From the NCBI RefSeq assembly GCF_018283675.1, contig NZ_JAGVRK010000001.1, forward strand, positions 2,604,001 to 2,668,000: DNA of 64,000 nucleotides, given 5' to 3'. Below the pieces are notes generated by a model that saw only the letters and a program-made list of their open reading frames with translations, was not told the origin of the DNA and searched no databases. Of the stretch, positions 2,879 through 64,000 are shown piece after piece. The number at the start of each line of letters is the position of its first letter. Within the stretch, counting starts at the first letter, position 1. The translations under genes and the position numbers were made by a program. The DNA comes from Metabacillus flavus (GTDB taxonomy: Bacteria; Bacillota; Bacilli; Bacillales; Bacillaceae).

Positions 2879-2967
2879 GAATCACCTCAAAAGATTATAT
2901 TTGGAATAAGTAAAAAAGGAGCAGCATAATGTGTAGGAGAATAGGCAAGTGAAGGAGGGGAAAGCCA

Positions 2968-3795
2968 TTGAACATCGGTTTTATTGGAACGGGCAATATG
3001 GGAAGGATACTTATCGAGGCTTTCGTTGAGTCAAAGGCGATAAAACCCCAGGCAATTCATATAACGAATCGGACTTTAGAAAAAGCTCATCATATACAAT
3101 CGGAGTTTCCAGGAATTCATGTGAGCGAAAACAGCGAAGAGATTGCGAGAACATGCTCTTTGATTTTTCTTTGTGTGAAGCCGCTTGATCTGCATGCATT
3201 AGTGACACGTCTTTCTCCGCAGCTGACGAAAGATCATTGTCTAATTTCGATTACGAGTCCCGTTTCTGCAAATCTTCTTGAAACCATCTCTCCCTGCCAA
3301 ACGGCCAGAGTGATTCCCAGCATTACCAACCGTGCACTGAGCGGAGTGTCGCTCCTCACTTTTGGAGAATCGTGCTCGGAGGAGAACCGGGCTTATATTC
3401 TTCAATTATGTTCTCGCATATCAGAACCTGTTCTCATTGAGGAGAATGTAACCAGGGCTGCATCTGATATTGTCAGCTGCGGGCCGGCATTTTTCAGTTA
3501 CCTTCTGCAACGTTTTACTGATGCGGCCGTTCAGGAAACACAAATCAGCAGGGAAATGGCGGAGCAGCTTGCAGCAGGGATGATTACGGGAATGGGGAAG
3601 CTGATTGAAACCGGGCATTATACACTGCCTGGCCTGCAAAAAAAGGTTTGTGTTAAAGGCGGAGTTACCGGTGAAGGAATCAGTATTCTTGAAAAGGAGC
3701 TTGGGAACGTATTTGAGCACTTGTTCAGGAAGACACATGAGAAGTTTGATGAAGATCTTTCGCTGGTCGGGGATCAATTCAGGAGCCATCACTAA
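2968..3795 (+). CDS. comER: ComER, pyrroline-5-carboxylate reductase-like protein
   Basis: Protein of 275 residues from the ProC (pyrroline-5-carboxylate reductase) family, encoded divergently from comEA as in B. subtilis. It starts at TTG behind GAAGGAGGGG. The Rossmann motif GFIGTGNMG (residues 4-12) and the C-terminal dimerisation region (CVKGGVTGEGISILEKE) are visible. The role in competence is historical. Links to sporulation and biofilm formation have been reported in other Bacillus species, but its reaction is not established. A bidirectional terminator follows. Confidence 0.9.
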   Translation: MNIGFIGTGNMGRILIEAFVESKAIKPQAIHITNRTLEKAHHIQSEFPGIHVSENSEEIARTCSLIFLCVKPLDLHALVTRLSPQLTKDHCLISITSPVSANLLETISPCQTARVIPSITNRALSGVSLLTFGESCSEENRAYILQLCSRISEPVLIEENVTRAASDIVSCGPAFFSYLLQRFTDAAVQETQISREMAEQLAAGMITGMGKLIETGHYTLPGLQKKVCVKGGVTGEGISILEKELGNVFEHLFRKTHEKFDEDLSLVGDQFRSHH

Positions 3796-50085: not shown

Positions 50086-50302
50086 GAAATCACCTTTTTT
50101 GAAGAAAACTTTATTGTACCTATTATCGTGAAAAAAAAGGGTTCTGTAAAGGGTAAGGAAAATAATTCGAATGGATATCCGGTTTAAGGGGGTAGAAGAT
50201 ATATATCGTGCACCTGATATGCAGGCTTTGTCTGCGCTTACATTGGATTTTTAAAAAAAACATTTTTCCGTAAAATAATTTACACTTCTTGTTTTCTATT
50301 CG

Positions 50303-50332
50303 AAAAAAACTGACCGCAGCCGGCCAGTTTTC
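50303..50332 (-). terminator. apt terminator
   Basis: Minus-strand stem AAAACTGgCCG / CGGtCAGTTTT around GCTG, then TTTCG. The rest of the 50086-50302 spacer holds relA leader sequence with no gene seen. Confidence 0.8.
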
Positions 50333-50344
50333 TCCAAATAATTT

Positions 50345-50857
50345 TTAATATTGCATTAATGTCATAACATCGTAGCCATCAAGCTTTTTGCGGCCATCAA
50401 GATAGGAAAGCTCGATCAGAAATGCCATTCCAGCAACTACTCCGCCAAGCTCTTCAACAAGCTTAATCGTTGCTTCAATTGTTCCGCCTGTTGCAAGCAG
50501 ATCATCTGTAATCAGCACTCTTTGTCCTGGAAGGATGGCATCTTTGTGGATGGTGAGTACATCTTTACCATATTCCAGGCCGTAATCTACTTTAATCACT
50601 TCCCGGGGAAGCTTGCCTTCTTTTCTTACAGGGGCAAATCCTACTTCCAATGCATACGCCACAGGACATCCGATAATAAATCCGCGCGCTTCAGGACCGA
50701 CAACTAAATCAATTTCCTTTTCACGGGCAAATTCAACAATCTGGTCTGTAGCATATTTATAGACTTCGCCTTTATCCATAAGTGTCGTAATGTCCTTGAA
50801 ACGGATTCCCGGTTTCGGATAGTCCTCGACGATCGTTACATATTGTTTTAAATCCAT
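50345..50857 (-). CDS. apt: Adenine phosphoribosyltransferase
   Basis: Purine salvage enzyme of 170 residues making AMP from adenine and PRPP. The PRPP-binding motif is [13 protein letters not shown]; the N-terminal [12 protein letters not shown] and VGPEARGFI are typical. Located between recJ and relA; adjacency to relA is conserved in Firmicutes. Confidence 0.97.
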
Positions 50858-50873
50858 CTTTCGTTTTTCCTCC

Positions 50874-53228
50874 TCAAACTTGAACAGGCTTAGAAAATCT
50901 GCTTATCCGTTCACCAAACAACTCGAGTAATTCACGGTAAGAGGAATACAGCAGCCTGTTTTCCAGCTCCATTTGATCTTTTTTCTTTTTATAGGCAATC
51001 GATTCACTTAAATCGCGTTTTCCACCTTGTCGATTAATCGAAATCAGACCATTAGTTATTGTAACAAAATCCAGCTCAAAAAACACCTTAGACATAAAAT
51101 CTATCGTATCTGCTGTCCAGCCTTTATGCTTCGCAAGCTCCGCACTGTGCCTTTTCAAGTCAAAACTGTCTCTTTTTGCAAGGAATCCATAAAACCATTT
51201 AAAATGCTCCCGTGTCGGAAGCGTGGAGAAAAAGTGATCCTCTGTCTGGAGGAAAAAAGCATAAATTCTTTCCGGCACGCCTTGGACAAATAAAGCTGTG
51301 AGTAAATCAAGGTCGTCAGGCACATCCATAAACACAGCATACCGGCCATTAAGATTTGTTTTTTCCGCCTCTTCAGTACTTTGAACATGAAGGCAATCAG
51401 ATGCAGCCCCATCCTTGATAAGCTGCTGCCGCGTTGCTTCTTTAAAGGCAATCAGCTGAGCTTTAGAATTTGGTATCCGTTCCAAAATCGTTTTCAGCTG
51501 GCGGGCACCGCGATGATCGAATAACTGCCATCCTTCGACTGCGGCATCCTGCAGCATAAATTGAGGCTTGCGGAAATTGTTCCATTCATTCACGGAAAGC
51601 TGGCCAACGACAGACACTTTGGACACGGGCGAAATCTCGTCATGCAAATACCCAAAACCGAATCCTACGCAGTCCACCTGGGAGGCATCCTGTTCAAGGG
51701 TAAGCTTCAGATGATTCTGATTCGAGCCGATTTTCCTCATCCCGGTTACCGTTAAATCCTCGATCATCACAACGGGCTTGGGATTGTTCATTCCGAATGG
51801 AGCGAGCAAATTCATTTCCTCAATCGTTGAAAGGCTCACCTCTTCTAATCTGCAGGACAAATCAACCTTCGTTAAAGGAATGAAATCTTCCTCTTTAAGC
51901 TGATCTTTCGCCAGCATGTTCAGTCTTTCCCGGAGCTCGTCTATATCCTCTGCAGCAAGAGTCATTCCTGCCGCCATCGGGTGCCCCCCGAAATGAGGAA
52001 GCAATTCACGGCATTCCGAAAGATTTTTAAAAAGGTCAAACCCGGCAATGCTTCTTGCTGACCCCTTTGCTTTTACTCCTTCTTCATCCAAACATAGAAT
52101 GATAGCCGGCCGGTAAAATTTCTCCACAAGCTTCGAAGCAACAATCCCTACTACACCGGGATTCCATCCTTTATTCGCAAGGACAAGAACGGGATATTCC
52201 GCAGGAGGATAGAGCGTTTCAGCCATCTCTATTGCCTCTTGAGCGATATCCTGCACAATTTTTTGCCTTTCGCGGTTGAGACTGTCAATTTCCGCGGCAA
52301 GTTCCGCAGCTTTTTGAGAATCAGCTGTGCGCAGCAATTCTACCGCAGGGTCAGCTGATTGAAGTCTTCCGACAGCGTTAATTCTCGGAGCAATCGCAAA
52401 GCCGACCGTTTCTTCGGAAAGCTGGCTGTCCTTCGAGGATGCCTTCTGAAGCAAAGCTTTAATCCCGGGACGATTCGTCTTTTTCAATAATTCAATGCCT
52501 TTAAAAGCAATCAGCCGATTTTCTCCATGCAGGGATACTAAATCAGCGATCGTCCCAATGGCCGCCAGTTCAAGAAATGAATCCTGGACGGTCCCAAGGA
52601 GGGCATTGGAGACCTTCAATGCAACCCCGACTCCCGCAAGCTCCTTGAAAGGATATCCGCTCCCAGGCAGCTTTGGATGCACAAGGGCGAGCGCATCAGG
52701 CAAAACCGGACCTGCTTCATGATGATCGGTGATAATTAAATCTACTCCAATTTCTTTTGCATACTCTGCCTCATCTACAGCCGAAATTCCGGTATCGACT
52801 GTGATAATCAGCGAAACACCTGCTTCTTTCTGTTTAAGAAATGCCTCTTTATTCGGACCATACCCCTCTGTAAACCGGTTCGGTATGTAGAAGTCTGCAT
52901 CAGCTCCTATTTGCTGAAGCGTTTCCAGCATTACAACGGTTGAGGTTACACCATCTGCGTCATAATCACCGTACACACAGATCTTTTCTTTGTTTTCAAC
53001 TGCACTTTTTATTCTTGCAGCAGCTTGTTCCATTCCATTCATTAAAAAAGGATCATGAAATTCCTGATGTTCCATATATAAAAATGCTTTTGCAGCTTCG
53101 GGTTCTTCAATTCCTCTGTTCACAAGCAGAGAAGCAACCAAATTCGAGATATTCAAGCTGTTTGCCAGCTTTTCTGCCTTAACGGCATCCGCATCTTTGA
53201 CGGACCATCGGGCTTTAGGTTTTAACAT
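50874..53228 (-). CDS. recJ: Single-stranded-DNA exonuclease RecJ
   Basis: 5'-3' exonuclease of 784 residues (yrvE). DHH motifs are [13 protein letters not shown] and [10 protein letters not shown], with the DHHA1 domain ([25 protein letters not shown]) and an OB-fold plus a Firmicutes C-terminal extension. An intact gene with its own promoter; the conserved B. subtilis gene order ends here. Confidence 0.96.
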
Positions 53229-53251
53229 TTATTTCACCCCTCAATCACTCT

Positions 53252-53280
53252 ATTATACTTTAGGCGGAAGACCGTTTCAA
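53252..53280 (-). promoter_or_regulatory. recJ-apt promoter
   Basis: TTGAAA (53275-53280), 17-base spacer, TATAAT (53252-53257) on the minus strand, about 20 bases before the recJ ribosome site. Confidence 0.85.
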
Positions 53281-53537
53281 ACAGGTTATGAGGGTCAAAC
53301 GTTTCTAAGGCTTATGGAAACTGGAAGGAAATTCATTATTTTTATAAAATAGTTTTTTATAGAATAATAGAAATATCAGTGAGTGTTACCAATGAAAAAT
53401 AAGGGTCAGACAGCAAAAAAGGATGTTACAGAAATTGGTGGTTCTTGATGGAATGCGTATTCATTGCAGGGTTTATTTCCGTCTTCGTTTTAAGATATTG
53501 ACTAGTTCATCAGCCGGCGTATTTTTCCAGACCTGTT
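53281..53537. other. Spacer at the accessory boundary, no gene seen
   Basis: AT-rich spacer between recJ and the histidine phosphatase gene. It contains a 17-codon plus-strand ORF without a ribosome site and no convincing repeat or att-like duplication. It marks the point where the conserved gene order stops. Confidence 0.6.
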
Positions 53538-54077
53538 TTAAATAAGCTCCTTCACAAAAACAATCTCCTCCCCATTTCTCAGGCGGATGGCTCTTTTTCC
53601 TGTATAACCGTGTTTAAGCAGTCTGCTTGTTAATACTGAGATGAAGAATCCGTGGGACACAACAAGTACATGCCGGCTGTTTTGGGATTCCAGCTCAGAG
53701 ATGTATTGATCTGCCCGATCAGCTGTCTGCTTCCTGGTTTCACTTTGAGAAGAATGAGAGAAAAACCAGGCGAGCCTTCCGAAGACAATCCATAGGAGAT
53801 ATGGAAGCCTGAAAGATGTCTGAACAAAAGGGGAAAGCGGAATTTCCCTCAAGCTTGGGGTTATGTGAGGCTGACCGTAGAGGGAAGCGGCGGTTTCGGA
53901 GGCTCTTGTCATATTGCTTGAGTGGCAGCTGTCCCAGGTTTCTGAACGCTTCATGTTATTCGGTTCGCAAAGAGGTGAATGATCGTAGCTGAAGCACCAT
54001 TCAGAAAACTCTTTCGATGTCATCATTTTTTTAGGGGGACAATCTACTCTATAATGTCTGATAATAGTTATTTTCAT
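53538..54077 (-). CDS. Histidine phosphatase family protein, variant RHY motif
   Basis: 179 residues in the phosphoglycerate-mutase-like fold. The N-terminal catalytic histidine lies in IIRHYRVD, where the family's RHG is RHY; the second block is MTRASETAASL and the second histidine is in VLVVSHGFF. It probably dephosphorylates a small molecule. GGGAG and the ATG at 54077 fit a short start; the longer reading adds three residues from a TTG. It may be a separate unit, since a ROK terminator lies upstream. Confidence 0.7.
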   Translation of the reverse strand: MKITIIRHYRVDCPPKKMMTSKEFSEWCFSYDHSPLCEPNNMKRSETWDSCHSSNMTRASETAASLYGQPHITPSLREIPLSPFVQTSFRLPYLLWIVFGRLAWFFSHSSQSETRKQTADRADQYISELESQNSRHVLVVSHGFFISVLTSRLLKHGYTGKRAIRLRNGEEIVFVKELI

Positions 54078-54237
54078 AACAGGCAATCTCCCAAACTCTT
54101 TTCTGGAATTTTACCATATTAAGGAAGATCAGAGACGCTTTTTAAGAGATTTTTGTTTTTAATGTAAACTTGGGCTGCTGGGTAGCTCACATGCATCCTG
54201 GAGGAAAATCAAGCAGCAACGTTTGCGAAAACCCAAA

Positions 54238-54275
54238 ATAAAAAATAATCCTTCCCTGCGGAAAGGATTATTTTT
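54238..54275 (-). terminator. Terminator of the sugar operon after the ROK gene
   Basis: Minus-strand stem AAAAATAATCCTT with AAGGATTATTTTT around TCCGCAGGG, followed by T-rich sequence; it overlaps the ROK stop codon (54268-54270). Confidence 0.85.
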
Positions 54276-55173
54276 CAAGAGAATGCAGCAGCATAAGACC
54301 CGCTCCTGTTAAGCCGGCGGTATCTTTTAAAGCACTTGCTGATATCCGCTTTGAAATCGGTTCATTCCGAAGCGATCGATAACCATCCAGAGTATGGAAA
54401 ATTTCAGCAGCAAGCCTGCGATTCCGGTTAATAACGCCGCCCCCAAGCACAATCCGGTGCGGATCAATCGTACAAATAATGGAATAAACTGATTTGGCCA
54501 AACGGGCAATTATCTTCTCCGTTTCCTTTGCCTGCTCTCCTGCAAGAAGGTAATCAAACAGCTCCATTTTCTGCTCCTCTATTTTCCCGCTGTATGCTTT
54601 CACCTTTTCGGAAATAGCTGATCCAGAAGCTACCTCTTCCAGGGTCCTATAAATAAAAGTGCCGTCTCCGTCCTCTTCCTCCACATTCATTCCAATTTCT
54701 CCGGCCATTCCTGCCCCTCTAAAAAAAGCTCCGTTATGAATAATGCTGCACGCAATGCCTGTGCTTACCGTCATAAACACAAAAGTTTCGTTTCGATTCC
54801 TGCCGATATGAACCCACTCCGCGTAAGCTGCCATGCATACATCGTTATCGAGGAGGACCGGCATCCCGAAGTCTTCCTGAAGTTTTTTTGCCAGAGGAAA
54901 GCTCCTCCAGGGAAGGTTATTGGAAAACAGAGCAAGCCCTTTTTCCCTATCAATTAATCCAGGAGAGCCAGCTCCAATTCCTGCAATACGCTCCCATTGA
55001 ATATCAGATTTGGCGATGACTTCCCCAACACAATCCTTTACCCGCTCATACATTTCTGCTTCGCTGGACGGTGCAGAAGGGCGAGTCGTTACTGAACCGC
55101 ATTTCCCTGACTCAAATACGAGTCCTGCCGCCACTTTGGATCCGCCAATATCCAGTCCAATCGCGCACTCCAT
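54268..55173 (-). CDS. ROK family sugar kinase-like protein lacking the zinc cysteines
   Basis: 301 residues with the ROK/hexokinase-actin fold: ATP motif AIGLDIGGSKVAAGLV (about 4-19), sugar-binding LLDNDVCMAAYAEW, and phosphate-2 region FMTVSTGIACSII. The usual GHTxVxxxGxxCxCGxxGCxE segment is replaced by GMNVEEEDGDGTFIYRTLEEVASG with no cysteines, so a structural zinc is unlikely. It may phosphorylate the imported sugar or act as a divergent sensor, though no DNA-binding domain is present. It begins 16 bp after the SIS gene. Confidence 0.8.
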   Translation of the reverse strand: MECAIGLDIGGSKVAAGLVFESGKCGSVTTRPSAPSSEAEMYERVKDCVGEVIAKSDIQWERIAGIGAGSPGLIDREKGLALFSNNLPWRSFPLAKKLQEDFGMPVLLDNDVCMAAYAEWVHIGRNRNETFVFMTVSTGIACSIIHNGAFFRGAGMAGEIGMNVEEEDGDGTFIYRTLEEVASGSAISEKVKAYSGKIEEQKMELFDYLLAGEQAKETEKIIARLAKSVYSIICTIDPHRIVLGGGVINRNRRLAAEIFHTLDGYRSLRNEPISKRISASALKDTAGLTGAGLMLLHSLEK

Positions 55174-55189
55174 ACCGTTTCCCCCCTGA

Positions 55190-56224
55190 TCAAATCGGAA
55201 TATGAACCACCTGTGTTAAATTTTTGGGGAGATCCGGATTAAGGCCTAGTAAGCATGCCCGGTAATAAGCTATTTTCTGTACATAAGGCATTGCAAGGAC
55301 TAAATGGTGATCCGCTGCTCCATTAGGTAAGACAAATGATTCCGTTACCTTCTCCCTGTCCTCTGAAGAAAGGACCGGTCCAAGATAATACACTTCTGCT
55401 CCAAGTTTCCTGCAATCCTCCAGGAGCGGCAGATCATATTTCAATGTTGAAGAGGAGCCAATGAGAATGACCGCTGTTTTGTTGCCGGCTATGGAAATCG
55501 GGCCGTGCCGGAATTCTAAAGAGCAATAGCTTTCGCATACAGTCTGGGTCATTTCCTTCAGTTTTAGCGTGGCTTCCTTTGCTATGCCGTTGTATATACC
55601 GCTGCCTAAATAAATCACGTTTTCCCATTCTATACTCTCAGAAAAATTTTTCACCTTTTCTGACAGATTTAAAGCTTCTTTCATTTTTCCAGGAAGAGCT
55701 TTCAATTCGTTCCATGCAGCCGGGTCATTGGCGTTATGCGCGGCATAGAGCTGCAGAGCATACAGCATGGCAGAAAAGCTTTGCGTCATCACCACACTCT
55801 TTTCATTCACATGAGACAGAACAATGGCTTCATCACAGCTTATACATAGAGGGGAATCTTCATTGCACGTTACTGCCATGACTGATACATTTTTCCTGTC
55901 CCGAACCTTGTTCACAGCTTCTACAGCCTCAGATGTCGTACCGGATCTTGAAATGACCGCAATTCTATAAACGGCATCCTTCGCCAATACTTCATCAGGA
56001 CACAAAATCAGCTCGGACGCCGGAACAGCTGCTGCAGGTCTGCCCGTTATTTTCTGATAATATTTTGCTGCACTGTGCGCTAGATAATAAGAGGTTCCGC
56101 AGCCGGTAAAAAGAAGAATCGTTCCTGGGTTCAGTGCTTCAAATGATAGATTATCCACTGCAAAAAACGTTTTTTCAATTATAGTTCCCTGATCATTGAT
56201 CTCGTTCAGCGTAAAGCTTTCCAT
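55190..56224 (-). CDS. Double SIS-domain sugar isomerase/deaminase, AgaS/GlmS-like
   Basis: 344 residues with two SIS domains. The first has FTGCGTSYYLAHSAAKYY and VISRSGTTSEAVEAV, the second YLGSGIYNGIAKEATLKLKE and SLEFRHGPISI. This is the arrangement of AgaS (amino-sugar phosphate deaminase/isomerase) and of the GlmS isomerase half, without a glutaminase domain. In context it could convert an amino-sugar 6-phosphate to a ketose 6-phosphate. Frl-type deglycases are the main alternative. Confidence 0.75.
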   Translation of the reverse strand: MESFTLNEINDQGTIIEKTFFAVDNLSFEALNPGTILLFTGCGTSYYLAHSAAKYYQKITGRPAAAVPASELILCPDEVLAKDAVYRIAVISRSGTTSEAVEAVNKVRDRKNVSVMAVTCNEDSPLCISCDEAIVLSHVNEKSVVMTQSFSAMLYALQLYAAHNANDPAAWNELKALPGKMKEALNLSEKVKNFSESIEWENVIYLGSGIYNGIAKEATLKLKEMTQTVCESYCSLEFRHGPISIAGNKTAVILIGSSSTLKYDLPLLEDCRKLGAEVYYLGPVLSSEDREKVTESFVLPNGAADHHLVLAMPYVQKIAYYRACLLGLNPDLPKNLTQVVHIPI

Positions 56225-56270
56225 GCTAATCCCTCCGCCTTTGTAATAGGAACCTTACATTGTCTGCCAG

Positions 56271-57211
56271 TTACACGCAAAAAACCTGCACCGTGTGTTT
56301 TATGTGTTCATAGTTCTCAATACGGATGGTGCCGGCTGTCCATTCCATTGCATTTGCAGCACCTGCGGCTGTCCCGCTGATCATCGCTTCTTTCCATCCA
56401 AGACCTTTGAACAGTGCAGCTGTAAATCCAGCCAGAAAGGCATCTCCGCATCCGGTTGGGTTAACGGCATGAACTTTAGGTGCCGCTGCGAAAAGAGTAA
56501 GTCCGCCGCTATAAAAAATTGAGCCTCTGCTGCCAAGTGTAAGAGCAATTGCATGTGCACCGGCATCTGCTGCTTTTTTAAGATCTTTTGCAATCTCGTT
56601 CACATCATTCAAGTCATAGTTCCTCCCAAATAAACCGGTCAGCTCTTGAAGGTTTGGTTTTATAAGAAAAGGCTTTGCTTGAAGTGCTTTTTCCAGCGCC
56701 TTCCCGCCCGTATCAAAAATAACCCTGGCTCCCTTTTCAGCCGCTCTTTCTGAAGCTTCAAGATAGGAGTCCTCATTCAGGCCCCTGGGAGACTGCCGGA
56801 AAAAAGAACGTATTGACTCTCAGCTGCAAGCTCTGCTAAATCTCTCTCCAAAAATTGCTTCCACTCGGCTGGTTTAATATCGGGACCTTTTTCAAGCAGT
56901 TCCGTTTGGATGCCGGCACATCCTGGATCTGCAATAGAGTGGCATGCCCGGCTTTCATCTTCAATTTCCGTAAACCGGCTGTTAATGGAGCGACTGGACA
57001 AAGATTCCGTGATAAACCGGCCATTTGCTCCTCCTGCAAAGCCTGCAGCTGTAACGGGAATTTGGAGAGTATGGAGTACTTTGGCTGCATTGATCCCTTT
57101 TCCGCCAGGCTCTTTAAAAACCTGCTGGATCCGGTTGATCTCATTCTTCCTGAACCTAGGGATGAGATAGGTCAGATCGGCAGCTGCATTCAGCGTAATG
57201 GTTGTAATCAT
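56271..57211 (-). pseudogene. PfkB-family ketose-phosphate kinase interrupted by a one-base frameshift
   Basis: Residues 1-144 read from the ATG at 57211 and stop just after FSGSLPGA. The next frame continues without a break as GLNEDSYLEASERAAEKGA and ends at 56271. Adding one G in the GGGG run at 56782-56785 would restore SLPGGLNEDSYL and 313 codons. N-terminal EPGGKGINAAKVL and C-terminal NPTGCGDAFLAGF are the two PfkB signatures, as in LacC/FruK (tagatose-6- or fructose-1-phosphate kinase). It could be a real inactivation or a sequencing error in a homopolymer. The ATG overlaps the aldolase stop (TAATG), so the pair would be coupled. Confidence 0.85.
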
Positions 57212-58071
57212 TACGAGACCCGCTGTTTTTCAAATAGAACCGCGATTTTTTCTTTTACCAGCATTTCGACACTTTCTCTTGCTGTCATGAAGTACTTCCT
57301 CGGATCGGATGCAGTTGGATGACTGTGTAAATAATTTCTCAGCTCAGCTGCAAATGCGAGCTTTAATTCGGTTGAGTAATTAATTTTTGCAATTCCGCAC
57401 TGGATTGCTTTCCTTACATCATCATCACTTACACCTGATGCACCATGCATGACTAATGGAATTCCAGAAGCATCCTTAATGGCCTCAAGCAGCTCGAAAT
57501 CCAAATCCGGTTCGTCCGCGTATACACCATGAACTGTGCCAAATGATGGAGCAAGGAAATCAATTCCCGTCCTCTTTGCAAACTCCCCTGCCAAATCAGG
57601 GTCTGTATAGCTTAGCCGGTCTGTTTTTTCGCCGTTCCCTTCATTCCTTGCGATGGAGCCAAGCTCGGCTTCAACCGGTATCCCCATTGCCTGGGAAGCC
57701 TCTGCTACTTTTCTTACAAGCCGGATGTTTTCTTCAAATTCAAGGGACGATCCGTCAATCATGATGGACGTATAGCCTGCCCGCAAGCACTGCATCGCGA
57801 TCTGGAAGGTATCCCCGTGGTCCAGATGAAGCGCGACAGGAATTTTCGCCTTTTCAGCTAAATCTTTAACTGCCGCAACTGTGTAATCAAGCCCCATATA
57901 ACGGACCGTATCAGGTGTTGTCTGAAGGATCACAGGTGAATTCAGACGCTCTGCCCCATTAATAACAGCCTTCATGATCTCAAGGTTATGAACAGCAAAT
58001 GCCCCAATCGCATACCCATTTTCAAAAGCATCCTTTACGATTTCTTTTGCCGTCACATAAGACACGTTCAA
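57211..58071 (-). CDS. Class II ketose-bisphosphate aldolase
   Basis: 286 residues of the FbaA/GatY/KbaY/IolJ family, cleaving a ketose 1,6-bisphosphate to DHAP and glyceraldehyde 3-phosphate. The zinc ligands and catalytic Asp are in VALHLDHGD, further ligands in GTVHGVYADEP and VMHGASGV, and the DHAP phosphate loop in IAKINYSTELK. The linked AgaS-like and PfkB proteins favour a tagatose-type bisphosphate, but fructose cannot be excluded. Confidence 0.88.
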   Translation of the reverse strand: MNVSYVTAKEIVKDAFENGYAIGAFAVHNLEIMKAVINGAERLNSPVILQTTPDTVRYMGLDYTVAAVKDLAEKAKIPVALHLDHGDTFQIAMQCLRAGYTSIMIDGSSLEFEENIRLVRKVAEASQAMGIPVEAELGSIARNEGNGEKTDRLSYTDPDLAGEFAKRTGIDFLAPSFGTVHGVYADEPDLDFELLEAIKDASGIPLVMHGASGVSDDDVRKAIQCGIAKINYSTELKLAFAAELRNYLHSHPTASDPRKYFMTARESVEMLVKEKIAVLFEKQRVS

Positions 58072-58086
58072 TCCTCCCCTTGCCCA

Positions 58087-59328
58087 TTATTTTTTAAAGT
58101 AAGCTGCTACTTTTCTAATGGCTCTTCCTGTTTCCTGGATATCCTGGTCTGTGAAAAATTCGCTAATCGGCAGCTTAATAGCCGTTTTCAGGATTTTTTC
58201 TGCCTCTGGACAGCTTCCGTCTTCATAGGTTTGCTCCGTTAAGCTGAACGGGTACTCGGTTCCTGGATAGGCAGACCGGTTTGCAAAAAGAGGCTGCTTG
58301 TAAAGGACTTCTGCTATATAACCTGCCTGATTGGGGATTCCCTCTTCCCTTAAAGCCTCAGAGAATTCTTCCCTCGAGCAGGTTAGCAAATTCAGGTCAA
58401 GCCTGAACATGTAAAACCAATAGGTCGACACGCTGTTTGCCGGAATTTCGGGAGGAAAGATCCCTTTGATTCCCTCTAGCATTCTAGTAAGCATCTCCCC
58501 GAGCTCCGTCCTTCTTGCACACAGGCCGGGAAGTTTTTTAAGCTGTGCAATCCCCACTGCACCCTGCAGCTCTGTCATTCGGTAGTTGGGAGCAAGCGAA
58601 CTGATTTTTCGGGTAACGGATGAATCAAAGCGGGAGTAGTTTTTATCGGCAAATGCGTGCGCACGCCTGTATGCTTCTTCATTCTGGTGATTAACCGTCA
58701 CCATCCCGCCGTCTCCAGTTGATATATGCTTGAAATCGTTCGTACTAAAGCATCCAAAATGGCCTATTGTGCCTGTCAGCCTGCCGTTTTGCTTTGCGAG
58801 ATAGCTTTGTGCACAGTCTTCAATCACAATCAGACCATGTTTATTTGCAATCTCCATAATTTGATCCATCCGGCATGGAGTTCCGGCGAGATGGACGGCT
58901 ATTATAGCTTTCGTTTTAGGGGTAATCACCCGCTCAATGGAAGCCGGGTCCAGATTAAAGCTATAAGGCTCTAAATCTGCGAAAACGGGGATCGCATTTT
59001 GATAAAGAATTCCAATTACCGTCCCCTGATCTGTTATAGGGCTTGTAATGACTTCATCCCCTGCGGAAATTCCAGCAGCACCCAGAGCGATATGGATGGA
59101 GGCTGTACCCGAGGAAGCTGCTACACTATGCTGTATTCCGTAAAGAGCATTAAAATGATGCAAGAAGGTTTTCACCTTCGTACCGAAGTGGTAGAAAAGG
59201 GTATCCTGTTCAAGCGCTTCCAGCAGTTCCTTTGCCTCTTCAAGGCCAAAGCGCTTCCCTGTGCCAAAGGGCGCCGTTTTTGATTTTCCCCCTCCATGAA
59301 TTGCAAGGGAATTAGTTTGAATGGCCAT
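58087..59328 (-). CDS. DegT/DnrJ/EryC1-type PLP sugar aminotransferase
   Basis: 413 residues, fold type I. VAASSGTASIHIALGAAGI binds the cofactor phosphate, VIEDCAQSYLA precedes the PLP-binding lysine in FSTNDFKHISTGDGGMV, and NYRMTELQGAVG is characteristic. Most relatives add an amino group to a keto-sugar nucleotide in antibiotic or surface-sugar synthesis. Here it sits among catabolic genes, so the reverse reaction or amination of an intermediate must be considered. It lies 12 bp after the two-domain gene. Confidence 0.85.
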   Translation of the reverse strand: MAIQTNSLAIHGGGKSKTAPFGTGKRFGLEEAKELLEALEQDTLFYHFGTKVKTFLHHFNALYGIQHSVAASSGTASIHIALGAAGISAGDEVITSPITDQGTVIGILYQNAIPVFADLEPYSFNLDPASIERVITPKTKAIIAVHLAGTPCRMDQIMEIANKHGLIVIEDCAQSYLAKQNGRLTGTIGHFGCFSTNDFKHISTGDGGMVTVNHQNEEAYRRAHAFADKNYSRFDSSVTRKISSLAPNYRMTELQGAVGIAQLKKLPGLCARRTELGEMLTRMLEGIKGIFPPEIPANSVSTYWFYMFRLDLNLLTCSREEFSEALREEGIPNQAGYIAEVLYKQPLFANRSAYPGTEYPFSLTEQTYEDGSCPEAEKILKTAIKLPISEFFTDQDIQETGRAIRKVAAYFKK

Positions 59329-59340
59329 CGCGTTCTCCTT

Positions 59341-61041
59341 TCAGGACGTTTGTGCTTGTTTATGCGAGAGGATTTTCTTTAGGCAAAGGTGACCATAACG
59401 GACCTCTGCTGCTTCTGCCGCCAAATCTGCCTTCTTTGGCACCGGTACCCAAATGACTGTATTTGCTCCGGACACCGCTCCTGATACGTTCGGTTCACCA
59501 GATGCTGAAACCCCTTCAATTTTCACCTTTCTTCTCGCCCGTTCCCAGATGCTTATCTGTTTGGATGTCCAAAATTCAAATTTATTGGCACGGGCTGCTT
59601 TCACTAATTTCCTGAAAGCCTCCGAAACCTTTGGCTGTTCAAGAAAATGAAGCTGATGAAAAAGAAAATGAGCAACACCGCCAATCCGTTTGACTTCTTC
59701 CAGAAAAGGATCAATCACGGATGTATCTGCAAGGGCATGATGATCGAGGTCCTGTGTTAAAAAGCCGAGCTCAAGTATGTCATACTGCCGGTTATTTTCG
59801 GTATGCCAGGCAATCGGGTAATAAGGCAGACACGTTCCAAATAAAAACCCGATGTTTCCCTTTTTGCTTGGTCCTCTGGACTGATCGACTTGAATGCCCT
59901 CTTTTTCACACCACTCAAACAGTTCTCCCCAGCCTTCAAAACGGGTATAGTGATTTTTATTTGTATAGACCGTTTTCAAATCTGCCTTGCTCTTCAAATC
60001 CTGCAGCTGACGTTTAAACTCTGACTCGCTCCACAGGCCACCCTCAGCCTCCAGCGCATTGTAATGAAAGGCAAGCTCATGGCCCTCCTGCTTGATCCTT
60101 TCATATAAAGGCCGCTCATATCCGGGCTCGATCATGCACCAAGTGGAATAAACTCCGCATTCTTTTAACAGCGAAAGTGTGATATCAGCCGATTCTTCCA
60201 AATTAAAATCACTATCATGCGAGATGGTGGCAATATGTTCAATCCCTTCAGGCCATCTCCCGACAAAAGGGACTGTCAGCCCTTTTTCCAAAGCCAGTTC
60301 TGCAAGCTTGTGAACGAGTACTTCCCGCCACTTATCCGCATGTGCTTCAGAGAAATATTTCATCCCTGTCTCTGTCGCTGCCCTGTCAATGCTCCAATCC
60401 AGTGTAAAGCCATCGTCAGCCTTCAGCAGTCCGTCATCAATTCCAGCCGTACCGTCCGGAGCCGGCTCCCCATCATGCAGGATTGGTTCGACTCCCTGCT
60501 GTATTCCGACAATTGAGTATGGGATGTCAGCCTGGCAGTGGACAATCTTTCCATTTCCTGCCTGAATAACCGTCCAAAGCTCTGACAGTATTTGTCCTGC
60601 AGGAGAGCCGCTCACTAAAAAGCCTGATTTCGCGTTCCACCCGGCAGGCTCCCCGTTATACCAATGATTTGTTTTCAGAAACCGGACAGGCTTTCGATGC
60701 CCAAGCTCCTTTGGCGTGTAGCCATATCCGGCACCCCCGCATACCGATTTGTATCCAGTCCAGTTTGCAAGCTTCGGAGAATCTGATAAATGAATCACAG
60801 TCCCCCCTTCCTCCACAAATGAGAGAAGCTGCGTGAGTGCCTGCTGGGATTCATTCAGCAACCCCGTAATGAGCAAATCTATCTCCTCTAATGAAGCGGT
60901 TTCCTTCGATAGATTCTGATAGGGAATTCCTAAATGGTCCAGCACTTCTCTTATATAGAAAGCGAAAACATTTTCCTGTTTTGCCCATTTATCTACTGCA
61001 GCCTGCTCATCCAGCAGCAATCCGATTTTTGCCATCCTCAT
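59341..61041 (-). CDS. Two-part protein: GATase-like N-domain and polysaccharide-deacetylase-like barrel
   Basis: 566 residues, no signal peptide. Residues 1 to about 200 resemble a class I glutamine-amidotransferase/ThuA-type fold (LLITGLLNESQQALTQLLSF, GGTVIHLSDS). Residues about 265-500 resemble a NodB-type (CE4) deacetylase barrel with HDSDFN in the metal position and GHELAFHYNALEAEGG as the second motif. It may remove an acyl group from the imported sugar. Its start overlaps the oxidoreductase stop by four bases. No characterised homologue is known to me, so the function is inferred from fold only. Confidence 0.6.
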   Translation of the reverse strand: MRMAKIGLLLDEQAAVDKWAKQENVFAFYIREVLDHLGIPYQNLSKETASLEEIDLLITGLLNESQQALTQLLSFVEEGGTVIHLSDSPKLANWTGYKSVCGGAGYGYTPKELGHRKPVRFLKTNHWYNGEPAGWNAKSGFLVSGSPAGQILSELWTVIQAGNGKIVHCQADIPYSIVGIQQGVEPILHDGEPAPDGTAGIDDGLLKADDGFTLDWSIDRAATETGMKYFSEAHADKWREVLVHKLAELALEKGLTVPFVGRWPEGIEHIATISHDSDFNLEESADITLSLLKECGVYSTWCMIEPGYERPLYERIKQEGHELAFHYNALEAEGGLWSESEFKRQLQDLKSKADLKTVYTNKNHYTRFEGWGELFEWCEKEGIQVDQSRGPSKKGNIGFLFGTCLPYYPIAWHTENNRQYDILELGFLTQDLDHHALADTSVIDPFLEEVKRIGGVAHFLFHQLHFLEQPKVSEAFRKLVKAARANKFEFWTSKQISIWERARRKVKIEGVSASGEPNVSGAVSGANTVIWVPVPKKADLAAEAAEVRYGHLCLKKILSHKQAQTS

Positions 61042-61976
61042 GTGTCACACCTGCCCATGCTATTTCTCTCGTTCTTTTTTCGGATAACGATTCTTTCGCC
61101 GCCGCGGTTCCGGCTCTGATTTACCGCTTCAATAAAGTGTATAATTTCCAGTGTCTCTTCATTCTCAGGAACAGGTCTCCCTGTTTTTGAAAAATGCACC
61201 ACTTGATCCAGAAGAGAAGCATAATAAGGTTTATGAGTCCGGCTCAAATTAAAATGCTGTTCCCCGGACTTCATAGAAACGAACGCTTCAAAATCAGCCT
61301 GTTCTGTTTTAGTGCCGATTATCGTTCCTGTTCTTGCCCCGCCCCACTCGCACATCACCATTTCCATCTCATCCCTTACGGAAGCCTGAACGCTCTCACA
61401 TCCCTTTCCCATAATGGAAAAGAGCATTTCAGCTAAGTGGATTCCATACCAGAAATAACCCGGCTGTGTTTTCTCAAAAAGCAGTGGACCGATGCATTCC
61501 GCATGATGAATACGCTCATTGCACGCAGACAAAAAGGACTTAAGGTTTTCGCCAAACCTTAGTGAAGAGCTGCTCATCAGCGGCACGTTCCATTCCTTCG
61601 CAAAATCGACCATTCTTTTGGCAGAATCTGCGGCAACTGAAAAGGGCTTATCAATAAAAACAGGAAGACCAAACGGACAAACTTGACGGAGCAGTTCCTC
61701 ATGCCTTCGTCCGTCAACAGAAGTAATCCAAACCGCGTCGCATTTTCCTGCCGCTTCTTCGGGTGTTTCTGAGATTTCAATGTGATATTTATCTCTTACT
61801 ATTGATGTATAATGCTCTACTCTATTTCTGCTTAATGGAAAATCCTCCGAACCTCCCGGATAGGCCGCCTTAATTGAAACACCTTTAATAAAGTGAGGAT
61901 TTTCCGGATTCATAACAAGATCGGTGAAAATTTCTGCATGGGACGTATCAAGTCCGATCAACGCTACATCCAGCAT
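61038..61976 (-). CDS. Gfo/Idh/MocA family oxidoreductase
   Basis: 312 residues with an N-terminal NAD(P) Rossmann domain (MLDVALIGLDTSHAEIFTDL; the usual GxGxxG is altered to GLDTSH) and the EKP-like motif as FIDKPFSV. The C-terminal substrate domain follows. These enzymes oxidise or reduce sugar hydroxyls, and pair with DegT aminotransferases in kanosamine-type pathways. It starts a new transcription block after the solute-binding gene. Confidence 0.82.
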   Translation of the reverse strand: MLDVALIGLDTSHAEIFTDLVMNPENPHFIKGVSIKAAYPGGSEDFPLSRNRVEHYTSIVRDKYHIEISETPEEAAGKCDAVWITSVDGRRHEELLRQVCPFGLPVFIDKPFSVAADSAKRMVDFAKEWNVPLMSSSSLRFGENLKSFLSACNERIHHAECIGPLLFEKTQPGYFWYGIHLAEMLFSIMGKGCESVQASVRDEMEMVMCEWGGARTGTIIGTKTEQADFEAFVSMKSGEQHFNLSRTHKPYYASLLDQVVHFSKTGRPVPENEETLEIIHFIEAVNQSRNRGGERIVIRKKNERNSMGRCDT

Positions 61977-62089
61977 CCGCTCATCCTTTCAAGCTGAAAT
62001 CAAATTTCCATATTGCTTCATGTTTCAAATCAATCGTTCCCGTGGAATTAGCCCTTATGGAATGACTTCTTTTAGCTCTCATCATGTTT

Positions 62090-62106
62090 ACATGTTAAAT
62101 ACATGT
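62090..62106. promoter_or_regulatory. Paired ACATGT palindromes upstream of the oxidoreductase gene
   Basis: ACATGT (62090-62095) and ACATGT (62101-62106) separated by TAAAT form a 17-bp near-symmetrical site in the gap between the solute-binding and oxidoreductase genes, just after the terminator. It could be an operator for the catabolic genes. No regulator gene is in the window. Confidence 0.35.
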
Positions 62107-62112
62107 ATAAGA

Positions 62113-62150
62113 ATAAAAAGGGGCATGGGATTCATAAAACCCAGCCCCCC
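62113..62150 (-). terminator. Terminator after the solute-binding protein gene
   Basis: Minus-strand stem GGGGCTGGG with CCCATGCCCC (one bulged base) around a TTTTATGAAT loop, then TTTTTATT. It likely reduces transcription from the transporter genes into the catabolic genes. Confidence 0.75.
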
Positions 62151-62158
62151 CTCCTCTC

Positions 62159-63712
62159 TTACTTCCAATGTTCCTCATCTTTAATCTGGGAATTGTACTC
62201 CTCAATCATTTTCTGGCCGCCCATATTCAAATATTCCTCGACCATCTTATCCCAGTCAGAAACCGGACGCTGCCCCGCAATCATTTTTGCCTGTTCATCG
62301 AAAAGAAACTGATCAAATTCTTCTTTTTTCTGCTGTGCCGTTTCAGATACAAGGCCATTGACAGGATTCATGTAATGCTTTGTAGACTTGTGCATTTCTT
62401 CAAGCTCTTTCGCAAGGCTTGAAACTTTTTCATTTTTATAATCCTTGTAGAACTCATTCACATCTTCATTCGGCGGCCACATTGCATTGTCTACATAGTA
62501 GGTAGAAGGCGTTTTTCCCTCTGTAGCAAAATTCGGGTCAAGTACCGCTGTTCCATCCTGCATGGTGTACCCTTTGCCTTCATTTCCCCACCACCAGTCA
62601 AACTCTTTATTATCCGGTGTCCGGTCTTCACGCGGATAGAAGGTGCGCCCGAACTCCATCATTTCAAGAATTTTTTCAATCTTGCCCGGATCTTTTGCAA
62701 GATCGGCCGAAATCGCGGTAATTCCGCCATAGCCTGAGGTTGCTGTATAACCGGTATTGCCGTCCGGATCAGCGAATGGGTAAAGCGGAGCGAATTCGGC
62801 ATTCGGCTGAAGCTCCAGTAATCCGGCATAATAAGCCTCCGACATTCCTCTCGGCGCTCCAACGAAAATTCCCGCTTTGCCTGAGAAGAACTCCTTATTC
62901 GTATCTGGCCACGTTAGTACCGCATAATCCTGCGTGATCGCTTTTTCTTTGTAAAGGTCGGCAAAAAATTGAATCGTTTCTTTGCGTGCATCGGAGATCA
63001 TTCCCGGGATATAATTGCCGTTTTCATCTTTATGCAGCCACGACTCTGCATTCCAATAAGCGCCCATGTCAAAATCCGGGTTGATTTTTTCTCCCATCGC
63101 AAATCCGTACGTGTCATTTTTTCCATTTCCATCTGGATCCTTTTTGGTGAAAGCTAACGCTACTTCTTTCAGTTCTTCATAGTTCTTTGGCATTTCAAGA
63201 CCCAGTTTGTCTAACCAGTCTTTACGGATAATCGGAGTCAGGTCAGCTTCAGGGTAATAAGTAGGGATACCATAAATTTTTCCATTTACCTTCATGGACT
63301 CCCAAATGTGATCTGGAACATTTTTTAACGTTTCATATTTGCCGATATAATCATCAAGAGGCAAAAATGCGCCTTGCCCCGCCCATTTTGCATACCGCGT
63401 GTCCACAGGTTCAAATCCAACCATGTCCGGTACATCCCCTGAAGCTACCACTGCAGAAAGCTTCTCCTGATAATCAGCCTGCGGAACGAATTGAACCTGA
63501 TAATCCACATTGAATTTTTCATTAATCATTTTCAATCCTGCGCCATCCTTTGGAGGGGGATCCCCAAAACGAAAATCAATGGCGGTTACTGTATATTTTT
63601 TATTCGGATCCTTTTCCTTTTCTGCCGGTTTAGAAGCGGTATCATTAGACGTACAGCCTCCTGCCAGAAGAATACCTGCTAATAAAAGACTTAACCCTTT
63701 CGCTCTCTTCAT
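62159..63712 (-). CDS. ABC transporter sugar-binding lipoprotein, LplA-like
   Basis: 517 residues, signal peptide with lipobox LAGGC (Cys20) and a Ser/Thr/Lys linker. The solute-binding fold of the large LplA/YtcQ type follows (VVASGDVPDMVGFEP, KIYGIPTYYPEADLTPIIRKDWLDKLG). These proteins bind oligosaccharides or glycosides, commonly from plant or bacterial polymers. A GGAGGG site precedes the ATG. It lies just after the permease gene. Confidence 0.9.
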   Translation of the reverse strand: MKRAKGLSLLLAGILLAGGCTSNDTASKPAEKEKDPNKKYTVTAIDFRFGDPPPKDGAGLKMINEKFNVDYQVQFVPQADYQEKLSAVVASGDVPDMVGFEPVDTRYAKWAGQGAFLPLDDYIGKYETLKNVPDHIWESMKVNGKIYGIPTYYPEADLTPIIRKDWLDKLGLEMPKNYEELKEVALAFTKKDPDGNGKNDTYGFAMGEKINPDFDMGAYWNAESWLHKDENGNYIPGMISDARKETIQFFADLYKEKAITQDYAVLTWPDTNKEFFSGKAGIFVGAPRGMSEAYYAGLLELQPNAEFAPLYPFADPDGNTGYTATSGYGGITAISADLAKDPGKIEKILEMMEFGRTFYPREDRTPDNKEFDWWWGNEGKGYTMQDGTAVLDPNFATEGKTPSTYYVDNAMWPPNEDVNEFYKDYKNEKVSSLAKELEEMHKSTKHYMNPVNGLVSETAQQKKEEFDQFLFDEQAKMIAGQRPVSDWDKMVEEYLNMGGQKMIEEYNSQIKDEEHWK

Positions 63713-63770
63713 CCCAATCCCTCCGTTTACAGTAATTGACCCATGAATTTAACCTGAATGCAGCGTTTCA

Positions 63771-64000
63771 TCACCCTTTAACAGATCCAAGCATCACCCC
63801 TTTAGCAAAGTGTTTTTGAAGAAATGGATACACGAGCAGGATCGGAAGCGTGGCGAGCAGGATCGCCGCCATTTGTATAGTTTCAGGCGGCGGCGGACTT
63901 TCGAGCATGGCAGCTGTACTGCCGAGTGCTGAATTGGGCTCATTGATGACGACAATCTGCCGCAAAACCACTTGAATCGGCCATAGAGACGGATCATTCA
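63771..64000 (-). CDS. Carbohydrate ABC transporter permease, LplC/YtcP-like, N-terminus beyond window
   Basis: The frame runs from the right edge to a stop at 63771 (76 codons visible). It contains NDPSLWPIQVVLRQIVV, a hydrophobic helix MAAILLATLPILLVYPFL and the C-terminal QKHFAKGVMLGSVKG, the typical end of the CUT1 inner permease subunit paired with LplA-type binding proteins. Apparent internal GTG/ATG starts are not real. Confidence 0.85.
   Translation of the reverse strand, partial: NDPSLWPIQVVLRQIVVINEPNSALGSTAAMLESPPPPETIQMAAILLATLPILLVYPFLQKHFAKGVMLGSVKG

What the first reader, a model, noticed from the sequence alone, without database searches (positions are those of the whole stretch)
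54268..64000. Candidate undescribed amino-sugar degradation pathway
Co-directional genes encode an oligosaccharide-type transporter, Gfo/Idh oxidoreductase, deacetylase-like protein, DegT aminotransferase, AgaS-like SIS protein, PfkB kinase, class II aldolase and ROK protein. AgaS, a tagatose-6-phosphate-type kinase and a bisphosphate aldolase are the ending of the N-acetylgalactosamine route. The oxidoreductase and PLP transaminase pair resembles kanosamine enzymes, perhaps run in reverse. The whole set is not a pathway I can name.
Basis: inference. Interest (0 to 1): 0.72.

Follow-up and report, generated by a model that had tools for sequence, protein, structure and literature searches.

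The report
Undescribed amino-sugar-removing glycan operon
A Bacillus relative carries a 22-kb set of sugar-eating genes whose core, a deacetylase-like protein usually found next to one particular aminotransferase, looks like an undescribed way of stripping an amino group off an unusual sugar so that the cell can eat it.

Summary
The gene set is real, but larger and arranged differently from the description. Window 54268-64000 is the 3' half of a 16-gene, about 21.8-kb, one-strand island. Outside the window lie two LplB/C-type permeases, a heparinase II/III-like protein, two propeller-like proteins, an esterase-like hydrolase and a GntR-SBP regulator. The island sits between recJ and secDF: that gap is about 24.6 kb here, 24.3 kb in G001 and 0.7-2.5 kb in three relatives. 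PfkB is frameshifted here but whole in four relatives.

Neighbourhoods split the proposed pathway in two. The conserved core is the NodB-like protein plus one DegT subfamily: of 398 genomes of the class, all 15 with this DegT also have the NodB-like gene, adjacent. SIS, PfkB and aldolase are in 5, 4 and 4 of 80 related loci. Best reading: deacylate, transaminate and, where the Gfo/Idh protein is present, reduce, so removing an N-acylamino group from a glycan sugar. GenS2/GenD2 do the last two steps in vitro (PMC4340712). Direction and substrate are inferred. AgaS/tagatose labels are not supported over glucosamine/fructose ones. Nine searches of the held library found no match.

The parts
62159..63712 (-). 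Solute-binding protein (SBP) of an LplABC-type importer; the two permeases (LplC, LplB) lie upstream at genome C1:2667771-2669646, outside the window
   Evidence: PF01547 E=1.9e-18; lipobox-like N-terminus seen by eye; permeases L006:1772-2662 and 2670-3647, PF00528
61038..61976 (-). GFO: Gfo/Idh/MocA-fold protein with a GLDTSH loop and the DKP and YGIH motifs
   Evidence: PF01408 E=1.2e-7; 28-row alignment; AF2 pLDDT 92.4; the 50 Foldseek hits listed are Gfo/Idh-type dehydrogenases, oxidoreductases or NAD-dependent glycoside hydrolases, among them GenD2, KanD2, WlbA and GnnA
59341..61041 (-). DEAC: protein without a signal peptide, with a C-terminal NodB/CE4-like deacetylase domain and an N-terminal domain that probably resembles the GH42 trimerisation/GATase type
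   Evidence: 37 of 62 family members match PF01522; AF2 pLDDT 90.3; Foldseek hits to polysaccharide/chitin deacetylases and to GH42 enzymes, query ranges not given; N-terminal placing from weak profile matches; invariant D276, D278, H321, H326; overlaps GFO by 4 bases
58087..59328 (-). DEGT1: DegT/DnrJ/EryC1/StrS aminotransferase of an unnamed, highly conserved subfamily
   Evidence: PF01041 E=2.6e-83; no NCBIfam model reaches its cut-off; K200 and D171 invariant in 52 rows, 62-92% identity to the 51 others
57211..58071 (-). ALDO: class II ketose-bisphosphate aldolase
   Evidence: PF01116 E=2.7e-98; cbbA subfamily 289.3 vs cut-off 215.6; GatY 334.3 vs 383 and TIGR01859 320.2 vs 343.05, both below
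56271..57211 (-). PfkB-family kinase gene, broken by a frameshift (halves 56777-57211 and 56271-56612)
   Evidence: PF00294 matches positions 17-140 and 204-289 in two frames; in one frame in G001, G002, G004, L011
55190..56224 (-). SIS: phosphosugar isomerase/deaminase of the GlmD/GlmS/AgaS type
   Evidence: PF01380 E=1.7e-25; NCBIfam GlmD 163.6, GlmS 132-140, AgaS 119.1 bits, all below cut-off; nearest PDB sequence PH0510
54268..55173 (-). ROK-family protein, kinase-type (the ROK domain fills the protein, no room for a DNA-binding domain)
   Evidence: PF00480 E=9.6e-45 over residues 5-294 of 301
54239..54277 (-). Terminator-like hairpin after ROK (18 pairs, 4 G-C, T-rich tail)
   Evidence: the scan as a whole is at chance level: 13 found, mean 11.5 in shuffles; this stem is the longest listed

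Best explanation
The island is a horizontally mobile glycan-use operon. An LplABC-type importer brings oligosaccharides into the cell, where a heparinase II/III-like protein and an esterase-like hydrolase (both without a signal peptide) trim them. The core module then removes an N-acylamino group from one sugar: DEAC takes off the acyl group, DEGT1 moves the freed amine to an alpha-keto acid and leaves a keto sugar, and GFO (where present) reduces the ketone with NAD(P)H to an ordinary hydroxyl. ROK would phosphorylate the resulting hexose or hexosamine; SIS would isomerise or deaminate it to a ketose-6-phosphate; PfkB and aldolase would cut it to trioses. Shown here: gene content, predicted folds, conserved residues and the tight DEAC-DEGT1 linkage. 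Inferred: direction, order, the C-3 position and the identity of the sugar. A 2,3-diacylamido hexose would explain why both such a module and a hexosamine-phosphate deaminase-like SIS are there.
For: DEAC-DEGT1 linkage: in 398 genomes of the class, DEAC in 18, DEGT1 in 15, both in 15, match ends within about 330 bases in each (hypergeometric 1.4e-24, not corrected for kinship); in 398 of the phylum 2 and 2, the same two genomes (there on one contig for the window genome only). In 80 loci fetched by DEGT1: DEAC in 64, adjacent in 53. Catabolic setting: LplC-type permease in 60 of 80 loci, heparinase-like in 17, GH20 in 8, Amidohydro_1 (labelled NagA-like by me) in 5, GH123 in 4. All 16 island genes were put to Pfam (KEL1 as 548 of about 571 aa): no nucleotidyltransferase or glycosyltransferase family. 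DEGT1 keeps K200 and D171 in all 52 aligned rows. DEAC has NodB-type fold matches. GFO is a Gfo/Idh fold. Precedent: GenS2+GenD2 convert kanamycin B and tobramycin to their 3''-hydroxy forms (PMC4340712, passages); KanD2 is in the PDB with NADH and 3''-deamino-3''-hydroxykanamycin A (title). DEAC is in 5 of 6 members of the genus, and the recJ-secDF gap that holds the island is short in G003, G006 and G007.
Against: GFO is in only 30 of 80 loci and in 0 of the 21 loci with KEL1, so the reduction step is often not encoded nearby; the island itself has both. 16 of 80 loci show no same-strand DEAC in the held flanks (at least L074, L086 and L087 are short or cut), and five loci carry an Amidohydro_2 protein and several an AraC regulator by DEGT1 instead. 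The three class-sample genomes with DEAC but no DEGT1 are one genus with lower-scoring DEAC; in the two that I looked at, DEAC sits near SIS, ROK and the ceramidase-like gene, which fits a plain hexosamine role. Laceyella loci carry a GNAT acetyltransferase beside DEAC, which fits acylation as well. An NAD-dependent epimerase-family gene is in 11 of 80 loci. Position C-3 rests on analogy only. DEAC was defined as a DEGT1 neighbour and the profiles include relatives of the sampled genomes, so DEAC genes without DEGT1 may be undercounted. Of ten unlabelled neighbours checked in nine loci, one is a glycosyltransferase match (L087, 28.4 bits, cut-off 25), three look glycan-related (DUF4838, SGL, GDSL) and most others are unrelated.
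Confidence: 0.5

Rival explanations
1. Plain hexosamine catabolism: the operon feeds on a GalNAc/GlcNAc glycan. DEAC does the N-deacetylation that NagA/AgaA does elsewhere, ROK-SIS-PfkB-ALDO do the rest, and DEGT1/GFO are side activities.
For: SIS, ROK, PfkB and aldolase form a normal hexosamine-phosphate route; no amidohydrolase of the NagA type passes among the 16 island genes. Diverged DEAC genes sit near SIS and ROK without DEGT1 in L131 and L132. Laceyella loci add GH123, Amidohydro_1 and glucosamine-isomerase-type genes.
Against: 59 of the 64 loci with DEAC show no SIS, and in Laceyella the pair coexists with the NagA- and NagB-like genes, so it seems to do something extra. DEGT1 is the most conserved of the three aligned proteins (mean column identity 69% vs 49% DEAC and 56% GFO, different row sets).
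Confidence: 0.2
2. Biosynthesis: GFO oxidises a sugar and DEGT1 aminates it, making a kanosamine-like or 2,3-diamino sugar, as in ntdABC or GnnA/GnnB; DEAC trims the product.
For: Both enzyme families are best known from biosynthesis (recalled); a GNAT acetyltransferase sits beside DEAC in Laceyella; GnnA and WlbA are among the fold matches of GFO; an epimerase-family gene in 11 of 80 loci.
Against: No nucleotidyltransferase, glycosyltransferase or HAD phosphatase family among the 16 island genes; import and glycan-cleaving genes around it; DEGT1 is nearer other aminotransferases (203 bits) than NtdA (95 bits).
Confidence: 0.12
3. Amino-cyclitol (inosamine/rhizopine-like) catabolism: DEGT1 acts as an inosamine transaminase, GFO as an inositol dehydrogenase.
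For: DEGT1 matches L-glutamine:2-deoxy-scyllo-inosose aminotransferases at 153 bits. Some loci carry a xylose-isomerase-like TIM barrel, a second Gfo/Idh and a second DegT.
Against: The TIM-barrel gene is in 8 of 80 loci and not in the island. Oligosaccharide-type importers, glycosidases and the heparinase-like genes point to glycans. PfkB, aldolase and SIS are not those of inositol breakdown (recalled).
Confidence: 0.08
4. DEGT1 is a PLP enzyme with another reaction (elimination, epimerisation) on an amino-uronic product of the lyase-like enzymes.
For: Heparinase II/III-like and KEL1 propeller genes in 17 and 21 of 80 loci suggest uronic acids; no GFO in the 21 KEL1 loci.
Against: Invariant lysine K200 is typical of transaminases (recalled); the 12 loci with GH20 or GH123 show no heparinase-like gene.
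Confidence: 0.1

Closest known systems
GenD2/GenS2 and KanD2/KanS2 (aminoglycoside 3''-amination)
   Same: A dehydrogenase of the GFO fold plus a PLP aminotransferase acting on a sugar residue of an intact glycoside; GenS2+GenD2 shown to run towards deamination (PMC4340712, passages); GenD2 and KanD2 are among GFO's fold matches
   Different: Biosynthetic, antibiotic producers, no deacetylase or importer in the pair; GFO is 13-17% identical to the GenD2 and KanD2 chains
WbpB/WbpE/WbpD (WlbA) and GnnA/GnnB for 2,3-diamino sugars
   Same: Dehydrogenase, aminotransferase and N-acyl step; run backwards this is DEAC, DEGT1, GFO (the order of the Wbp steps is recalled)
   Different: They act on UDP-sugars in biosynthesis (recalled; PDB titles name UDP-GlcNAc(A)); DEGT1 gives 108-111 bits with WbpE, 203 with its best PDB hit
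ntdABC kanosamine operon of Bacillus subtilis
   Same: A DegT aminotransferase with a Gfo/Idh dehydrogenase (operon content recalled)
   Different: No HAD phosphatase family found in the island; DEGT1 vs NtdA 95 bits only; importer and glycan enzymes instead
Aga (N-acetylgalactosamine) and archaeal GlmD hexosamine routes
   Same: SIS deaminase/isomerase, PfkB kinase, class II aldolase
   Different: No protein passes its AgaS, LacC, GatY/KbaY or GlmD cut-off; ABC importer, no AgaA/NagA-type match above cut-off in the island
Lpl/Yte-type ABC glycan operons of Paenibacillus and Bacillus (type recalled)
   Same: LplB/LplC-type permeases, DUF624, SBP, intracellular trimming enzymes
   Different: I found no description of one with the DEAC-DEGT1 core (searches named in Tried and rejected)

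Membership tests
DegT/DnrJ/EryC1/StrS aminotransferases (PF01041) | Pfam match over the whole fold | tested here: met
   280.6 bits vs cut-off 19.8, profile 6-359 of 360
DegT/DnrJ/EryC1/StrS aminotransferases (PF01041) | PLP lysine (transaminase type, not dehydratase type) | tested here: met
   K200 invariant in 52 of 52 rows; its role is recalled, not computed
Named NCBIfam sugar aminotransferases (PseC, LegC, ArnB, WecE and others) | Score above curated cut-off | tested here: not met
   Best PseC 192.6 vs 423.5; same for a Laceyella member
NodB/CE4 polysaccharide deacetylases | Pfam PF01522 cut-off | tested here: inconclusive
   Window protein E=0.11, below cut-off; 37 of 62 relatives match at E<=0.05; L088 member 23.8 bits vs cut-off 23.1
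NodB/CE4 polysaccharide deacetylases | NodB fold with conserved Asp/His | tested here: met
   Foldseek hits to deacetylases, E from 1.5e-6; D276, D278, H321, H326 invariant in 62 rows; metal binding not tested, residue roles recalled
NodB/CE4 polysaccharide deacetylases | Deacetylase activity | not testable with these tools
   Needs protein
Gfo/Idh/MocA dehydrogenases | Gfo/Idh fold with conserved Lys and His | tested here: met
   Foldseek TMq 0.62-0.76 in the 50 listed hits; K110 and H180 invariant in 28 rows; residue roles recalled
Gfo/Idh/MocA dehydrogenases | Canonical GxGxxG/A cofactor loop | tested here: not met
   Loop reads GLDTSH in 27 of 28 rows, GLDTTH in L073
N-acetylgalactosamine (Aga) pathway | AgaS model TIGR02815 | tested here: not met
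   119.1 vs 529.2 bits
N-acetylgalactosamine (Aga) pathway | Tagatose-6-phosphate kinase and tagatose-bisphosphate aldolase models | tested here: not met
   Intact kinase orthologue 193.3 and 204.6 vs 409.55 and 469; aldolase GatY 334.3 vs 383, KbaY 219.8 vs 542
N-acetylgalactosamine (Aga) pathway | Works on tagatose rather than fructose phosphates | not testable with these tools
   Needs assays
Archaeal-type GlmD glucosamine-6-phosphate deaminase | NF041128 cut-off | tested here: not met
   163.6 vs 580 bits, though the best of the nine models that match
ntdABC kanosamine operon | HAD phosphatase NtdB beside the pair (recalled) | tested here: not met
   No HAD family among the 16 island genes put to Pfam
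UDP-2,3-diamino sugar biosynthesis (Wbp/Wlb/Gnn) | NDP-sugar substrate | not testable with these tools
   No nucleotidyltransferase family in the island, which speaks against it

The most novel reading that the evidence does not exclude
DEAC-DEGT1(-GFO) is a portable catabolic cassette that reverses sugar C-3 (or similar) amination: it strips N-acylamino groups from rare glycan sugars such as 3-acylamido or 2,3-diacylamido hexoses in the cytosol, so that many different glycan operons of Bacilli can feed those residues into ordinary hexose or hexosamine metabolism. As far as I know it would be the first transaminase-based degradation route for amino sugars of this kind.
Probability: 0.33. Interest if true: 0.75.

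Novelty: new variant of a known kind. Interest (0 to 1): 0.56.

Why it matters
Rare amino sugars (3-amino, 2,3-diamino) are known mainly from how they are made; how bacteria break them down is, as far as I recall, poorly described. A tightly linked deacetylase-like/transaminase pair that occurs in many different glycan operons gives a concrete, testable entry point. If the chemistry is right, the enzymes would be tools for removing amino groups from glycans and would explain a subfamily of DegT proteins that no NCBIfam model names.

Tried and rejected
Considered and set aside. A single operon-wide pathway ending in tagatose phosphates: cut-offs not met and the SIS/PfkB/aldolase set is separable. 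An NTD-like biosynthetic operon: no NtdB-like gene, no sugar-nucleotide family in the island. KduI as a mark of uronate use: the one PF04962 match lies about 1 Mb away and could as well be IolB (my judgement); a KDPG-type aldolase exists elsewhere; inconclusive. KEL1 as a known lyase: no Pfam family and no meaningful PDB sequence match. An RNA element: none at Rfam gathering scores in 50000-64000. Promoter scan: 9 found, mean 15.3 in shuffles, of no use.

Literature: nine full-text searches of the held library gave no paper on this module; I saw listings and starts of abstracts only, and not every paper found was listed (12 of 39, 8 of 20). A tenth looked for the GenD2/KanD2 precedent; of PMC4340712 I read passages. 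Papers outside the library (most subscription journals, preprints) are not covered.

Rows dropped: the 80 loci are the best of 274. DEGT rows matching under about 250 profile positions. DEAC proteins outside 545-620 aa and GFO outside 290-345 aa. For A3, DEGT1 proteins outside 395-440 aa (86 rows to 61 references), then nine more by hand, seven near-duplicates plus L049 and L074. My ORF picker misplaces genes in GC-rich loci; counts use the profile-based. Held flanks are at most 10 kb, so absences are absences there only.

The DEAC-near-SIS/ROK loci without DEGT1 were added.

Full report
What is there. The window is C1:2604001-2668000 of a 4.03-Mb, two-contig genome. In transcription order on the minus strand, 63712-54268 encodes SBP, GFO, DEAC, DEGT1, ALDO, a broken PfkB, SIS and ROK. 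GFO and DEAC overlap by 4 bases; from there to ROK the gaps are about 50 bases or less. A long terminator-like hairpin follows ROK. Beyond the window, going upstream, come LplC, LplB, DUF624, a heparinase II/III-like protein (PF07940, 56.2 bits), a 981-aa protein with a Big_2 domain and a hydrophobic N-terminus (propeller-like by eye), a GntR-SBP fusion, an alpha/beta hydrolase (DLH/AXE1-like) and KEL1, another protein with propeller-like repeats by eye. That makes 16 genes over about 21.8 kb. In a crude hydropathy check over relatives, 18 of 25 SBPs and 11 of 17 Big_2-type proteins have a hydrophobic N-terminal stretch, against 0 of 67 DEAC, 0 of 27 esterase-like, 0 of 18 heparinase-like and 3 of 20 KEL1 proteins.

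An island. The distance between the recJ and secDF matches is about 24.6 kb here and 24.3 kb in G001, but 2.5 kb in G003 (same genus), 1.5 kb in G006 and 0.7 kb in G007. DEAC is found in 5 of 6 members of the genus, this genome included, and in no other of the 80 genomes of the family searched. I infer that the genus includes Metabacillus kandeliae and Bacillus sp. SJS from identical DEGT1 rows.

Two separable modules. I fetched the best 80 of 274 loci that encode a DEGT1 relative and labelled genes with profiles built from the loci themselves. Of 80 loci, DEAC is in 64 (53 within 400 bases on the same strand; 11 at 1.2-8.5 kb), an LplC-type permease in 60, a GntR-SBP regulator in 43, GFO in 30, KEL1 in 21, the heparinase-like gene in 17, ROK in 11, SIS in 5, aldolase in 4 and PfkB in 4. 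In 16 of 80 no same-strand DEAC is seen; at least three of these contigs are short or cut.

A second test. In 398 genomes drawn from the class, DEAC occurs in 18 and DEGT1 in 15; all 15 have both, and the match ends lie within about 330 bases in each. The three DEAC genomes without DEGT1 are one genus with lower-scoring DEAC (470-475 bits); in the two examined (L131, L132), DEAC sits near SIS, ROK and a ceramidase-like gene. In 398 genomes of the phylum the same two genomes carry both genes. The chance figure of 1.4e-24 ignores kinship; the 15 genomes span 12 genera in 7 families as labelled by the tool. A caution: the profiles include relatives of some of these genomes, and DEAC was defined as a DEGT1 neighbour.

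What the proteins are. DEGT1 is a PLP aminotransferase by family, with K200 and D171 invariant in 52 rows. It reaches no NCBIfam cut-off. Its best PDB sequence match is a 'sugar aminotransferase' (203 bits), with perosamine synthetases, inosose aminotransferases, WbpE and NtdA below it. A second DegT clade of 17 rows sits in some of the same loci with GH20, TIM-barrel or ceramidase-like genes. DEAC was folded with a 62-row alignment (pLDDT 90.3): Foldseek finds polysaccharide and chitin deacetylases, human NDST1 and GH42 enzymes, without query ranges. Profile matches place the deacetylase part C-terminal (chitin deacetylase at 269-347, PF01522 at 284-348) and a GH-associated domain N-terminal (GH167 chain at 6-88, E=0.015; GH42M in 2 of 62 and DUF4350 in 9 of 62 members). 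GFO folds as a Gfo/Idh enzyme (pLDDT 92.4). Its fold matches include GenD2, KanD2, WlbA and GnnA, but many other Gfo/Idh enzymes score alike, so this does not fix the substrate. Its cofactor loop is an unusual GLDTSH in 27 of 28 rows.

What it probably does. Import plus trimming enzymes, without nucleotidyltransferase or glycosyltransferase families in the island, point to breakdown. DEAC then DEGT1 then GFO is the reverse of making an N-acylated amino sugar. The chemistry has a direct precedent: PMC4340712 reports that GenS2 with GenD2 turns kanamycin B and tobramycin into their 3''-hydroxy forms, while GenS2 alone does not (passages read). That the position is C-3, and that the sugar might be a 2,3-diacylamido hexose whose second amine is removed by SIS, are inferences. 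Weak points: GFO is missing from many loci (and from all 21 KEL1 loci fetched), some loci lack DEAC, a diverged DEAC occurs without DEGT1, Laceyella loci carry a GNAT acetyltransferase, an epimerase-family gene is in 11 of 80 loci, and of ten unlabelled neighbours checked one matches a glycosyltransferase and most are unrelated to sugars.

SIS scores GlmD 163.6, GlmS 132-140 and AgaS 119.1 bits, all far below cut-off. The intact PfkB orthologue in L011 passes the 1-PFK hexose-kinase subfamily (285.5 vs 216.4) and is nearer 1-phosphofructokinase (264.6 vs 292) than tagatose-6-phosphate kinase (193.3 and 204.6 vs 409.55 and 469). The aldolase is undecided between GatY and FBA models. In the window strain PfkB is frameshifted, so that step, if needed, would come from another kinase, or the break may be a sequencing error.

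Known or new. All enzyme families are known; the DEAC-DEGT1 cassette in catabolic operons was not found in nine full-text searches of the held open library. I rate it a new variant of a known kind: an amino-sugar catabolic operon with an undescribed core.

Noticed in passing
window 56271-57211: The PfkB kinase gene is frameshifted in this strain, while four relatives keep it in one frame; natural pseudogene or assembly error cannot be told apart here.
   Followed up: partly
L058, L061, L063, L073, L089 (17-row clade): A second DegT clade travels with GH20, MR_MLE enolase-type, ceramidase-like and TIM-barrel genes in the same loci as DEAC-DEGT1: possibly a second deamination step.
   Followed up: partly
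L065:14670-15959 (family CERAM12, in 14 of 80 loci): A protein matching only the N-terminal half of neutral ceramidase (PF04734) recurs in these sugar loci; perhaps an amidase on N-acyl sugars.
   Followed up: no
L015, L021, L031, L035, L049, L067, L068: DEGT1 next to a divergent AraC regulator (in some with an Amidohydro_2 protein) without DEAC: another context of the same aminotransferase.
   Followed up: partly
L131 and L132: A diverged DEAC without DEGT1, near SIS, ROK, a ceramidase-like gene and a GntR-SBP regulator; may show an older or different use of DEAC.
   Followed up: partly
L006:9921-11357: GntR DNA-binding domain fused to a whole solute-binding protein, probably a cytosolic one-component sugar sensor; found in 43 of 80 loci.
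   Followed up: no
L091:7559-8975: A short, tandemly repeated peptide-like frame open in three frames between housekeeping genes; by eye a DNA repeat array rather than a protein.
   Followed up: no
L091:14987-16501: LysM-type protein with many NVMGA repeats (safA-like spore coat protein, judged by eye).
   Followed up: no
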